Assembly (NCBI GenBank): GCA_003165235.1
Contig: PLSV01000347.1
Span: forward strand, 5,809 to 50,178
Direction: 5' to 3'
Length of the DNA stretch: 44,370 nt
Source: Syntrophobacteraceae bacterium
Lineage (GTDB): Bacteria > Desulfobacterota > Syntrophobacteria > Syntrophobacterales > Syntrophobacteraceae
Shown piece by piece: positions 16,876-21,087 of the stretch. How positions within the stretch are numbered: the first letter of the stretch is position 1; the number at the start of each line of letters is the position of its first letter. The position numbers and the translations under genes are program-made. Below the pieces are notes generated by a model. It did no database searches. It worked only from the letters and a program-made list of their open reading frames with translations, and had not been told where the DNA came from.

Positions 16876-17880
16876 CTACCAGAAGAGTTTAAGCCTTTTT
16901 TTCTTGAATTCCTTCGTGCTGAAAAGAATCCGGAAGTTGTCAAGCCCGGTGGCAGCCGTGAGCTTGCCCGCAATGGACTCGCATTCCTGCCTGCTGCGTC
17001 CATGGATCATTGCATACAGGTTATACGGCCACTCAGGATAGGCAGGCCTGCTGTAACAATGGCTGACCTCCGGGTATGAGGCCAGGATGGCTCCGATCCG
17101 GTCGATCCGGTCCTGGGGACAGTTCCAGACGACCATTCCATTGGCGCTAAATCCAACCTGGCGGTGATTGAGCACGGCCGCGAATCGCCGAATCGTACCC
17201 TGGCGCATCCACTCAGAAACGGTCCTCAGAAGCTCGGACTCCTCCATTCCGAGTGAATCGGCCCACACGCCAAAAGGCTTTGGCACAAGGGGCAAGTCCT
17301 CCTGGATGCATTTGACGATTCCAATATTTGCGGGGGTGGGACTGAAGTTCCCATTTGGTTCGGTGGGCGGCGGCTCCGTTTTTTCTTCGGTGTGCTCCCA
17401 GTCCCCCTCTTCCAAAACGTCGAGCACCACGGCCAGCTTATATTTCTTGACGGCAGGCAAAACCAGCGCGGGCATGGCGACGGGGCCGCCCCCAACGCAT
17501 GCGGCTTTGGAGGAAAGCTCAGAAACTACCGCATCGAGACTCTGGCCGGGAGGCGCCGCAATCGTAAACCACATATTGAAGGCGCCCGGGCGCAGATAAT
17601 TGTGGCTTACTCCGGGGTATCCGTTTATGATTTGAGCGGCTTGCTCCAGCGCCTCTTGCGGTACGGCCATAGCCACAAGGCTGCTCCGGTATCCGAGCGC
17701 CCCCGTATTGAAGATGGCGCTGATCTGGCGGATTTTCTTATCCTTTTTCAAAATTCCGATTCGTTCCCGTACTTCCCCCTCGGAGATATCCATCCCTTCG
17801 GACAGAACCCGATAGGGGTCCGGGACTATTGGAAATGAACGCTGGACCCTGTCAAGCAGAACCCGACTCGTGGAATCCAA
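16876..17880 (-). CDS. siroheme decarboxylase, fused AhbA-AhbB
   Basis: A 334-residue fusion of two Lrp/AsnC-like modules. The N-terminal half (about 1-150) has a helix-turn-helix-like region, then FNTGALGYRSSLVAM and HNYLRPGAFNMWFTI. A charged, proline-rich linker follows (about 160-185), then a second module with VLNHRQVGFSANGMVVWN and WPYNLYAMIHGRS. These are signatures of AhbA/AhbB and NirD/NirL, which decarboxylate siroheme to didecarboxysiroheme. In sulfate reducers this opens the alternative heme pathway, so the enzyme shares its substrate with DsrAB assembly. The start is a TTG with AAAGGAG 7 bases upstream. In many sulfate reducers the two subunits are separate genes; here they are one, as in some NirDL proteins. 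Confidence 0.88.
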   Translation of the reverse strand: MDSTSRVLLDRVQRSFPIVPDPYRVLSEGMDISEGEVRERIGILKKDKKIRQISAIFNTGALGYRSSLVAMAVPQEALEQAAQIINGYPGVSHNYLRPGAFNMWFTIAAPPGQSLDAVVSELSSKAACVGGGPVAMPALVLPAVKKYKLAVVLDVLEEGDWEHTEEKTEPPPTEPNGNFSPTPANIGIVKCIQEDLPLVPKPFGVWADSLGMEESELLRTVSEWMRQGTIRRFAAVLNHRQVGFSANGMVVWNCPQDRIDRIGAILASYPEVSHCYSRPAYPEWPYNLYAMIHGRSRQECESIAGKLTAATGLDNFRILFSTKEFKKKRLKLFW

Positions 17881-18083
17881 GACGATGCTCCTTTAATGAA
17901 AAGTGAGCAGTGAAAAGAAAAAGCCAAACCGGGCGGCGATCGGATGTCGGGAAGCACGGTTTTCTGTTCAGCGCTCGTAAACCTGGTGAATATATATCCA
18001 ACCCTCTTTCAGGACAAGCAATGCTTTGCTATTATCCTTGAGAGGGCGAAAGCCGGCCCACCGATTACCCAAAGGATGCGCGC

Positions 18084-19220
18084 ATGCCGAACAACCGTAT
18101 GAAGCTGAAGCATCTGAACCTGAAAGGTTTCAAGTCTATTGACAGTGAAGGGCAGTCGATAACCTTCGGAGATATTACCGTCTTTTTGGACGCCAATGGC
18201 GCCGGGAAAAGTAACCTTGTATCTTTCTTCAAGCTGTTGAACTACCTGACCACAGGGGGACTTCAAACTTTCATCGGCGAACAAGGATTTGCCGACTCAC
18301 TGCTTTATTACGGCTCCTCTACGACATCCCGGATTCAGGCTGAATTGAGTTTCCAGCAAGATGGCGCAGACAAACATACTTACAGTTTCACACTTTCCCA
18401 TGCGAGCGGCGATACGCTCATTTTTACGAAAGAATATGTGACGTGGGATAGAGCCGGACGGCTACACCTGAGGACGATCGATCTGGGCGCCGGTCACAAG
18501 GAAACGAAACTCCTCGACGATACGGCGCCAGACAGTTTGACAAGGCGGATCGTTTTCAATTTTCTCAGATCATGCCAACTTTACCACTTTCACGATACAT
18601 CCAGTACAGCGAAGATCCGGAATCAAGGTTATATAGGTGACACAGACTGTTTGCGGGACAATGCCGGCAATTTGGCTGCCTTCCTTTTCACGATGGCTAA
18701 CAACGGGGAATGGAAAAAACATTACGACCGCATTGTTCGCAATATTCAGTTGGTTTTGCCCCAGTTCGGTGATTTCGTATTGAGGCCTTCGCCATTGAAT
18801 AAAGATTATATCCGTCTGGATTGGCGTGAAAAACGAAAGGATTACCTTTTCGGCCCTCATTTGCTGTCGGACGGGTCGCTCCGCTTCATGGCGTTGGCAA
18901 CGCTTTTGTTGCAGCCTGCCGAGTCTCTTCCCAAAGTCATAATTCTCGACGAGCCGGAGCTCGGGTTGCACCCCACCGCGATATCCTCTCTGTCAGGCAT
19001 GATTCGGACGGCGTCGGTAAACTCTCAGGTTATTTTGGCGACTCAGTCACCTCGGCTCGTGGACGAGTTCAATATCGATCAGATCGTTATTGTCGAAAGG
19101 GATGAAACAAAAGATCGCAGCCTGGTCAAACGCCTCGATGAGAAAAACCTCGCCGAATGGTTGGAACGATACAGTCTATCCGATCTCTGGGAAAAGAACG
19201 TTCTGGGAGGCCGGCCATGA
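18084..19220 (+). CDS. AAA-family (RecF/SMC-like) ATPase, Walker A altered
   Basis: A 378-residue ATPase of the AAA_21/RecF-like class, as found in PARIS-, Septu- and OLD-like defence pairs. It opens with KLKHLNLKGFKSI. The P-loop reads DANGAGKS (residues 36-43) where GxxxxGKS is expected: the first glycine is aspartate, a single-base change from GGC to GAC. The signature-like LLSDGSLRF, Walker B VIILDEPELGLHP (D289, E290) and the switch ATQSPRLV are intact. ATG 18084 has AAAGGA upstream. The stop overlaps the next gene as ATGA, so the pair is one unit. Function unproven; a link to phage defence is by analogy. Confidence 0.85.
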   Translation: MPNNRMKLKHLNLKGFKSIDSEGQSITFGDITVFLDANGAGKSNLVSFFKLLNYLTTGGLQTFIGEQGFADSLLYYGSSTTSRIQAELSFQQDGADKHTYSFTLSHASGDTLIFTKEYVTWDRAGRLHLRTIDLGAGHKETKLLDDTAPDSLTRRIVFNFLRSCQLYHFHDTSSTAKIRNQGYIGDTDCLRDNAGNLAAFLFTMANNGEWKKHYDRIVRNIQLVLPQFGDFVLRPSPLNKDYIRLDWREKRKDYLFGPHLLSDGSLRFMALATLLLQPAESLPKVIILDEPELGLHPTAISSLSGMIRTASVNSQVILATQSPRLVDEFNIDQIVIVERDETKDRSLVKRLDEKNLAEWLERYSLSDLWEKNVLGGRP

Positions 19221-19904
19221 CTTTCATCCGGCTTCACGTAACCTCGGAAGCCCAGACGGAGGAAGCGTTCGTCAAAAGGATTCTTGCACGCCATCTCGGT
19301 GCTTTCAATGTATTCGCCGACGCTCGATCAGTCCTGACGAGCAGGGACAAGAAGGCCCACGAGCATTATCGGGGAGGGCTTGTCAGCTATTTAAAAGCGA
19401 AGGCCGATAGTCAAAACCTGGATGAAAGAGGATGGACACGCCGAGTGCCGGTTCACTACCATGTTCGATCTATACAAACTTCCCGGCGATTTTCCAGGGC
19501 ACACCGATGCAGGCAGAGAAAACGACCCATATCGAAAAGTGCAAGTTTTTGAAAATGCATTGAAAGACGATATCGACGATCGCCGTTTCATCCCATACAT
19601 TCAACTGCACGAATTCGAGGCGCTGATTCTTGCCGATCCCGGAAAACTGGACTGGGAATACCTCGATCACGATGCGCCGATTCAATGCCTCGTCGATATG
19701 GTTGGAAACCAAAACCCGGAAATGATCGACGATACGCCTGAGGGTGCCCCATCCAGGAGGATTCTTCACGAACTGCCGGAATACGACAAGGCCAATTCAG
19801 GTGTGCTGGTCGCAGAAAAGATAGGACTGCAGACCATGAAAACGAAATGCTCTCATTTCCGAACGTGGGTAGAGTTGCTGGAAGGATTGGCGAAAGCGCG
19901 ATGA
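19217..19904 (+). pseudogene. DUF4276-family partner of the ATPase, broken by a +1 frameshift
   Basis: The first frame (from ATG 19217) encodes MTFIRLHVTSEAQTEEAFVK, matching the acidic N-terminal motif of DUF4276 (usually EGxTEE). The homology then moves to the next frame, which reads WMKEDGHAECRFTTMFDLY, LPGDFPGH and YIQLHEFEALILADP, all typical of the family. Skipping one base near 19409 joins the two parts smoothly (AD then VKTWMKED) into about 228 residues, the usual family length. Left uncorrected, the first frame stops at 19552. No slippery sequence is evident, so this is a mutation or sequencing error rather than programmed shifting. DUF4276 proteins often pair with AAA ATPases and may be TOPRIM-like nucleases (inference). 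Confidence 0.8.
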
Positions 19905-19929: not shown

Positions 19930-21087
19930 ATGAACAAAGAGAAACCGGGCCACACTATTCCATCAATTGAATGTTTTATAAGCACCGGCTCGAAACTGGT
20001 CCCGCTTGACGCGGCATCCGAACGGCTTGCTTTACCCGGCGGAAGACTGCCCGCCGCCCCGCAGGCCGATCATGCGCCCATAACGTACGGCCAATACATG
20101 AGTTCGGTTGCGCGCCTGCTTTCCGAAAACTCTTTCATGGTTTTGAGAAAACTTCTCAAAAGGCAACTCAAACCCACCCCGAAACTTGAGGCGGCATCGA
20201 ACATCGAACTTATCGCCGAAAAACACGGAGCGCTCTATAGCGTTTTGCGCCTTCGCATACGTTTTGCCGATGATGAGCGTTCATTTGCCGTAAATTGCGC
20301 CTTCTCGCCAGATCGGCAGGCTTTCCTCAAGGTCGAAGCAAAGCTCCTTGCCAACCTTCACGCGAGATTCGGCCTCCCGTACCTCCCGCTGCCCTTTGTT
20401 TCAGCAAAAGCCCCGGAACTCATGCTCTTGATTGCCGAGTGGTTCGAAAACCATTGCGAATTCCACCTTTCCCCGGACGCATCGGGAGCCCCCGCCATAA
20501 ATGTATGGAGACAGAGCGGAGAGCCGCGATTCCTTGACGCCGAAAAGATCGGTGAACTCTACGCACAGGCTTCCAAAATCCTGACATTATACCTCGATAG
20601 CCGGACCTTTTCACAAATCTACCCATGGCACCATGCGGCGGGTGATTTCGTAGTGGACGAAAGCCAAAATCCCCTGAGCCTCCGGTTGATAACCGTTCGA
20701 GGCTACCGGCCGTTGCTTGCCCGAAAATCCGATTGCAGAGACAAGATGTTGGGGTCGCTGCATTTTTTTGTGAATCTGGCCATAAGGATGAGGATCGACA
20801 GGCTGGACGGGACCGGCAAGTTGGCATGGGCGGGACCGCAGTGCATGCCCGGGGTGATTCGAGGGTTTGTGGAGGCTTGGGAAACCAGGCGGGACAATGC
20901 CCATTTGCCAAAAGCCCGCGAGATCTTCTCGCTGTTTTTGGACTTCTCCCCTGATGAAAGGTTGGCGTTTGCCGAAATCGCAGCCGCAGATGGGCGTGTC
21001 GAAGCCGACGAGAGCAGTTTTTTGCTTGCCCGCCTGCCCGGGCGCGTGACCGAGCTTTCGGACGCCTTAGGAAATTTTGTATTTTAA
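19930..21087 (+). CDS. protein of unknown function, possibly a divergent kinase-like fold
   Basis: A 385-residue protein without signal peptide or membrane helix. I do not recognise a named family. The middle contains EAKLLANLHARFGLPYLPLP, then LLIAEWFENH, then IYPWHHAAGDFVVD and LSLRLITVRGY. In order and spacing this recalls the helix, hinge, catalytic HGD-type loop and metal-binding segment of aminoglycoside-phosphotransferase-like kinases, but the metal-site aspartate is not evident. Treat the kinase idea as a weak inference. The C-terminal 60 residues are helical and acidic (EIAAADGRVEADESSF). It starts 25 bases after the DUF4276 gene and could be its operon partner, though its ribosome binding site (GAAGA) is weak. 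Confidence 0.75.
   Translation: MNKEKPGHTIPSIECFISTGSKLVPLDAASERLALPGGRLPAAPQADHAPITYGQYMSSVARLLSENSFMVLRKLLKRQLKPTPKLEAASNIELIAEKHGALYSVLRLRIRFADDERSFAVNCAFSPDRQAFLKVEAKLLANLHARFGLPYLPLPFVSAKAPELMLLIAEWFENHCEFHLSPDASGAPAINVWRQSGEPRFLDAEKIGELYAQASKILTLYLDSRTFSQIYPWHHAAGDFVVDESQNPLSLRLITVRGYRPLLARKSDCRDKMLGSLHFFVNLAIRMRIDRLDGTGKLAWAGPQCMPGVIRGFVEAWETRRDNAHLPKAREIFSLFLDFSPDERLAFAEIAAADGRVEADESSFLLARLPGRVTELSDALGNFVF

What the first reader, a model, noticed from the sequence alone, without database searches (positions are those of the whole stretch)
18084..19904. Decaying ATPase/DUF4276 two-gene module
An AAA ATPase overlapping a DUF4276 gene by ATGA has the layout of ATPase-nuclease defence pairs such as PARIS or Septu. 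Both genes look damaged: the Walker A glycine is aspartate (GAC for GGC) and the partner has a +1 frameshift near 19409. Two independent lesions suggest the module was silenced because it is costly or toxic. If the ATPase change is native to the family, it would be an unusual P-loop.
Basis: partly seen in the sequence, partly recalled or inferred. Interest (0 to 1): 0.6.

Follow-up and report, generated by a model that had tools for sequence, protein, structure and literature searches.

The report
Broken copy of HEC-01 defence module
This is a recently inactivated copy of an already catalogued candidate anti-phage gene pair (HEC-01: an ABC-type ATPase plus a DUF4276 protein that models as an OLD-type Toprim nuclease), inserted between two conserved host genes; intact copies exist in sister species, so it is mostly ordinary.

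Summary
An AAA_21/OLD-type ABC ATPase (18084-19220) overlaps by ATGA a DUF4276 gene (19217-19904). Residue 36, the first P-loop position, is Asp; the partner is frameshifted between about 19406 and 19421. The pair is PADLOC's HEC-01A/B, not PARIS or Septu. Asp36 is not native: all 65 other distinct homologues with a readable P-loop have Gly, including two congeners 71% identical. 57 of 69 assessable modules have an unbroken DUF4276. The window copy also has Ala for a Gly found in 62/62 homologues beside the putative catalytic Glu. Otherwise the proteins show no faster evolution, so inactivation is recent, or the indel is an assembly error that only reads can exclude. The site is empty in six congeners; the module sits between a conserved promoter region and that promoter's gene. 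DUF4276 models closest to the Toprim domain of Class 2 OLD nucleases (Z 9.4), with matching conserved E, E, D, E, K but DxY for DxD. Best reading: a dead copy of a split-OLD, PARIS-like pair. Silencing because of toxicity is untested; neutral loss fits equally. Degraded member of a known kind; interest low to moderate.

The parts
18084..19220 (+). HEC-01A: OLD-type ABC ATPase (AAA_21), 378 aa
   Evidence: Pfam AAA_21 5e-20; PADLOC HEC-01A PDLC04175 9.4e-132 over 6-378
18189..18212 (+). Walker A codons 36-43, DANGAGKS in place of GxNGxGKS; Asp36 is the lesion
   Evidence: 65 of 65 readable homologues have Gly at the first position
18867..18884 (+). ABC signature region SDGSLR, intact
   Evidence: columns D263, G264, R267 invariant
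18948..18974 (+). Walker B DEPELGLHP, intact
19217..19552 (+). HEC-01B (DUF4276) 5' piece, frame of ATG19217; homologous to about codon 64, then out of frame to stop 19550-19552; holds the putative catalytic Glu11 and Glu15 and the G12A change
19422..19904 (+). HEC-01B (DUF4276) 3' piece, +1 frame; holds the putative catalytic D84, E132, E134, K194 (numbering of L045)
   Evidence: Pfam 5.8e-35; PADLOC HEC-01B 5.6e-51; alignment
16876..17880 (-). Left flank: siroheme decarboxylase (AhbA/NirDL-type) gene, conserved across the family
   Evidence: Pfam NirdL-like_HTH and AsnC_trans_reg2; 24 of 26 family genomes
19930..21087 (+). Right flank: conserved 385-aa gene without Pfam match, normally adjacent to and divergent from the left flank
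   Evidence: 21 of 26 family genomes; 152-194 bp between the two genes in six congeners
17989..18017 (-). Promoter-like TTGTCC-17-TATATT for the left flank gene
   Evidence: region conserved in congeners
18007..18035 (+). Conserved promoter-like TTTCAG-17-TATTAT (TTCCAA-17-TACTAT in congeners), natively ahead of the 385-aa gene, now ahead of the ATPase
   Evidence: alignment of empty sites; hexamers assigned by eye, not found by the consensus scan

Best explanation
A recently inactivated HEC-01 defence pair. The intact system is, by anatomy, a split OLD nuclease: an ABC-type ATPase sensor or gate and a separate Toprim-fold nuclease (DUF4276), translated in tandem (ATGA coupling). Inferred mechanism: the ATPase binds ATP, assembles and holds the nuclease in check; an infection cue releases or activates it to cut nucleic acid, as AriA/AriB does in PARIS. 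In the window the ATPase has Asp at the first P-loop position and the nuclease gene is frameshifted so that its putative metal ligands (E11, E15 versus D84, E132, E134, K194) fall on two different polypeptides, so neither product should work. Shown here: family membership, the uniqueness of both lesions, empty sites in sister species, the OLD-Toprim-like fold of an intact homologue. Inferred: nuclease activity, infection sensing, loss of function.
For: PADLOC HEC-01A 9.4e-132 and HEC-01B 5.6e-51. The two closest relatives, in congeners, have Gly36 and one unbroken DUF4276 frame. Gly in 65/65 readable homologues, 57/69 assessable modules with full DUF4276. G12A against 62/62 Gly. No excess amino-acid change on the window lineage (Tajima chi2 0.08 and 0.82 for the ATPase, at most 1.33 for the two DUF4276 pieces; pN 0.16-0.21 with pS 0.75-0.85), and only one of 43 otherwise invariant ATPase columns broken. 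Site empty in six congeners. Model of intact DUF4276 (pLDDT 75.8) best matches Class 2 OLD C-terminal Toprim regions 6nk8/6njx/6njv/6njw, Z 8.5-9.4 over 175-184 residues, against 7.5 for the next unrelated fold. Elsewhere the pair lies inside or next to restriction-modification genes on plasmids.
Against: Loss of function is inferred, not measured; Asp at P-loop position 1 has not been assayed in this family. The genome is a 424-contig assembly of 7.07 Mb at 8.9% contamination, larger than all ten congeners (3.7-5.5 Mb), so an assembly error or strain mixture could create the frameshift. The structural model rests on three sequences, with rmsd 4.5 A and 11% identity to OLD. No sequence-level PDB match for DUF4276.
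Confidence: 0.8

Rival explanations
1. The frameshift (and perhaps the Asp36 change) is a sequencing or assembly error, and the organism carries an intact HEC-01.
For: 424-contig assembly, 8.9% contamination, oversized genome; no reads are at hand; protein evolution of the module is not relaxed.
Against: Three separate departures at otherwise invariant sites (G36D, G12A, frameshift) cluster in one 1.8-kb module; the 20 other long window ORFs scanned show no split Pfam domain.
Confidence: 0.15
2. The module was actively selected against because the nuclease became toxic once the ATPase gate was damaged (loss of the gate first, then of the toxin).
For: Ordered loss would explain two lesions; in 11 of 68 other assessable modules the DUF4276 partner is broken or missing beside an ATPase gene; in PARIS, AriA sequesters AriB and activated AriB kills the cell (PMC12409363).
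Against: No order of events can be read from one sequence; neutral loss predicts the same; no control rate of gene decay was measured; some 'missing' partners may be divergent.
Confidence: 0.3
3. The frameshift is read through (programmed +1 shift) or the 160-aa piece from ATG19422 is a functional truncated protein.
For: An ATG lies in frame at the break.
Against: 57 homologous modules have the full protein in a single frame; no recognisable shift site or ribosome-binding site at 19401-19425 (by eye); the piece lacks the invariant E11 and E15.
Confidence: 0.04
4. Asp36 is a native, unusual P-loop.
For: The rest of the ATPase is intact and constrained.
Against: 65 of 65 readable homologues, including 71%-identical congeners, have Gly.
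Confidence: 0.03

Closest known systems
HEC-01 (Hma-embedded candidate 1; PADLOC HEC-01A + HEC-01B)
   Same: Both proteins match over their length; same gene order, ATGA or near overlap; found in several phyla, on plasmids and beside restriction-modification genes
   Different: This copy has a damaged P-loop and a frameshifted nuclease; it stands alone between housekeeping-type genes, not inside an Hma or RM locus
PARIS (AriA/AriB)
   Same: ABC ATPase plus separate Toprim nuclease encoded in tandem (PMC10568477, PMC12409363)
   Different: ATPase matches AriA only weakly (3.9e-20 against 9.4e-132 for HEC-01A); the partner is DUF4276 and matches no AriB model
OLD family nucleases, Class 2 (GajA-type)
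   Same: ATPase is OLD-like (best PDB profile match 6p74); DUF4276 model best matches OLD Toprim regions; conserved residues in the order E, E, D, E, K with similar spacing to E400, E404, D455, E508, K562 (PMC6755086)
   Different: ATPase and nuclease are separate genes; DxD is DxY (Tyr in 60/65, never Asp); the Thr506 position appears to be Glu; no GajB helicase beside it
Septu (PtuA/PtuB)
   Same: ATPase similar (PtuA 2.2e-12)
   Different: Partner is not an HNH nuclease

Membership tests
HEC-01 | HEC-01A-type ATPase | tested here: met
   PDLC04175 9.4e-132 over residues 6-378
HEC-01 | HEC-01B (DUF4276) gene directly downstream, same strand | tested here: met
   PDLC04188/04190 on both pieces, ATGA overlap; frame broken
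HEC-01 | Intact reading frames in both genes (a functional system) | tested here: not met
   Frameshift in DUF4276; so it is a degraded copy by descent, not a working system
HEC-01 | Antiphage activity | not testable with these tools
   No bench data; the source paper on HEC systems is not in the library held
PARIS | AriB (DUF4435-type) Toprim partner | tested here: not met
   Partner matches DUF4276 and HEC-01B models only
Septu | PtuB HNH nuclease partner | tested here: not met
   No HNH match in the partner
OLD/Toprim nuclease (for DUF4276) | Toprim fold with helical OLD extension | tested here: met
   AF2 model of intact homologue L053: 6nk8 Z 9.4, 184 of 198 residues, rmsd 4.5; Foldseek E 2.1e-4, probability 1.00; medium-confidence model
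OLD/Toprim nuclease (for DUF4276) | Catalytic Glu motif plus DxD | tested here: inconclusive
   E11, E15, D84, E134 and K194 conserved in order, but the second Asp of DxD is Tyr; residue mapping by motif order, not by coordinates

The most novel reading that the evidence does not exclude
HEC-01 is a split OLD nuclease with a variant Toprim centre (DxY for DxD, E-x-E for T-x-E), and this copy is a natural loss-of-function allele in which gate and nuclease were lost in a fixed order because the ungated nuclease is toxic.
Probability: 0.15. Interest if true: 0.5.

Novelty: new member of a known kind. Interest (0 to 1): 0.25.

Why it matters
It adds little as a defence system: HEC-01 is already catalogued. 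What is useful: it settles that Asp36 is a lesion and not a new P-loop; it gives a structural assignment for DUF4276 (still 'unknown function' in Pfam) as an OLD-type Toprim domain with named residues to mutate; and it gives an empty-site and filled-site pair in one genus where the module appears to have been dropped between a promoter and its gene.

Tried and rejected
PARIS or Septu membership: partner is not AriB-like or HNH. Native Asp P-loop: rejected, 65/65 Gly. Programmed frameshift: rejected, homologues are in one frame. Long-standing pseudogene: not supported, no rate excess. Phage carriage: no match among 50,697 phage records; two IMG/VR contigs carry intact modules. Same site in congeners: G414 and G413 carry modules at a shared but different site. 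R211K was first counted as a lesion but K, E and others occur there. DUF4276 has no sequence match in the PDB even at E 1 and only a chance-level Pfam hint to OLD-like_TOPRIM (E 0.2, 1 of 20 members). Literature: no paper in the held library names DUF4276; HEC-01 is named in passing in Desulfovibrio piger (PMC12724379).

Full report
OBSERVATION. The ORF at 18084-19220 encodes 378 aa and its stop overlaps the ATG at 19217 as ATGA. Codon 36 is GAC. Pfam finds AAA_21 in the first product and DUF4276 in two frames of the second, profile positions 2-49 and 50-192. The ATG19217 frame is homologous to DUF4276 for about 64 codons and ends at 19550-19552; the remainder continues in the +1 frame, with an ATG at 19422.

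WHAT IT IS. PADLOC assigns the pair to HEC-01 (HEC-01A E 9.4e-132; HEC-01B E 5.6e-51 and 3.1e-14 on the two pieces). HEC stands for Hma-embedded candidate, systems found between genes of the Hma system (PMC12111858; PMC12988326). Similarity to AriA (PARIS), PtuA (Septu), AbiLi and GajA is far weaker. Homologues were fetched from 395 genomes of the same phylum, the order, two other groups of 398 and 350 genomes, plasmids and viral contigs. On plasmids the pair stands between an SNF2-type protein and a DNA methyltransferase in Aeromonas media, and between a helicase, a methyltransferase and an Mrr protein in Ideonella, as expected of a defence module.

ARE THE LESIONS REAL TO THE FAMILY? In all 65 distinct modules where the P-loop could be read, its first residue is Gly (alignment of 20). 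The two closest relatives, in congeners G414 and G413 (71% identity), read FLGANGAGKSN and have DUF4276 in one unbroken frame. Of 69 modules with enough downstream sequence, 57 have a full DUF4276, 8 (the window included) a broken one and 4 none within 1.2 kb. The window copy also has Ala where 62 of 62 homologues have Gly, next to the invariant Glu11. In leave-one-out tests G36D is the only one of 43 otherwise invariant ATPase columns that it breaks.

HOW OLD IS THE DAMAGE? Against the two congeners and an outgroup, the window proteins show no excess of amino-acid change (ATPase 26 versus 24 and 25 versus 19 unique changes; DUF4276 pieces not significant), with pN 0.16-0.21 and pS 0.75-0.85. 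Synonymous sites are saturated, so a branch dN/dS cannot be given. The plain reading is purifying selection until recently, or an assembly error for the indel. The assembly has 424 contigs, 7.07 Mb and 8.9% contamination, larger than any of ten congeners at 3.7-5.5 Mb; the 20 other long window ORFs scanned show no split Pfam domains. No reads are available.

THE SITE. The left neighbour (siroheme decarboxylase type) and the right neighbour (385 aa, no Pfam) are conserved in 24 and 21 of 26 family genomes. In six congeners they are adjacent and divergent with 152-194 bp between. In the window 2.05 kb separates them. The conserved intergenic block, including a promoter-like TTCCAA-17-TACTAT element (TTTCAG-17-TATTAT in the window, 18007-18035), lies left of the module, and the 385-aa gene starts 25 bp after the module's end. 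So the module appears to have entered between that gene's promoter and its ORF; that it uses this promoter and that the downstream gene depends on read-through is inference. The hexamers were picked by eye; the consensus scan found only the divergent minus-strand promoter. G414 and G413 carry their modules at a shared but different site. Module G+C is 0.49-0.51 against 0.55-0.57 for the flanks, which agrees with horizontal gain.

HOW IT LIKELY WORKS. The ATPase profile's best PDB matches are OLD, SMC, PtuA, retron ATPases, GajA and AriA. An AlphaFold2 model of the intact DUF4276 protein of viral contig locus L053 (three-sequence alignment, pLDDT 75.8, pTM 0.77) matches the C-terminal Toprim regions of Class 2 OLD proteins best: 6nk8 Z 9.4 (184 of 198 residues, rmsd 4.5), 6njx 9.0, 6njv 8.6, 6njw 8.5; the next, unrelated folds reach 7.5, and Foldseek ranks the same OLD entries first with E 2e-4 to 6e-4. 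In Class 2 OLD the metal ligands are E400, E404, D455, D457, T506 and E508, with K562 assisting (PMC6755086). DUF4276 has, in order, E11 (62/62), E15 (61/62), D84 (65/65), E132 (63/64), E134 (65/65) and K194 (62/66), with Tyr at the second DxD position (60/65). Spacing D84-E134 is 50 (OLD 53) and E134-K194 is 60 (OLD 54). The mapping is by motif order and is not proven. The pair is therefore best seen as a split OLD system, like PARIS, in which the AriA hexamer sequesters the AriB nuclease until a phage protein triggers it (PMC12409363). By analogy the ATPase gates the nuclease. In OLD-type systems the Walker A Lys is needed for P2 Old killing and for Retron-Eco8 defence (PMC10568477), so a P-loop lesion should matter; the effect of Asp at position 1 itself is not known here. 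In the window the frameshift parts the putative ligands onto two polypeptides.

WHY WAS IT LOST? 'Silenced because toxic' is possible but not shown. Among the 68 other assessable modules 11 have a broken or missing DUF4276, which shows that loss of the partner recurs, but no control rate was measured and some partners may be divergent. Neutral loss after relaxed phage pressure explains the same data.

VERDICT. A real, correctly read, probably dead copy of a known candidate defence system. The structural reading of DUF4276 is the most useful by-product.

Noticed in passing
window 19930-21087: A 385-aa protein without Pfam match is conserved in 21 of 26 family genomes next to, and divergent from, a siroheme decarboxylase gene; function unknown.
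   Followed up: partly
L186 (Tolypothrix plasmid), L163, L132, L152: HEC-01A-type ATPases without a recognisable DUF4276 within 1.2 kb; L186 is followed by two hypothetical genes and a VWA protein.
   Followed up: no
L133: DUF4276 is split by roughly 260 extra bases (profile 1-128, then 125-217), possibly an insertion element.
   Followed up: no
G414, about 1420-1490 of query L049:11700-13500: A short sequence of about 40-80 bases recurs dozens of times in G414 and in congeners, a dispersed repeat.
   Followed up: no
own genome C252:99403-100539 and C410:15550-16722: Two further, distant ATPases related to HEC-01A (20-25% identity over most of the length); one C410 match has an internal TGA.
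   Followed up: no
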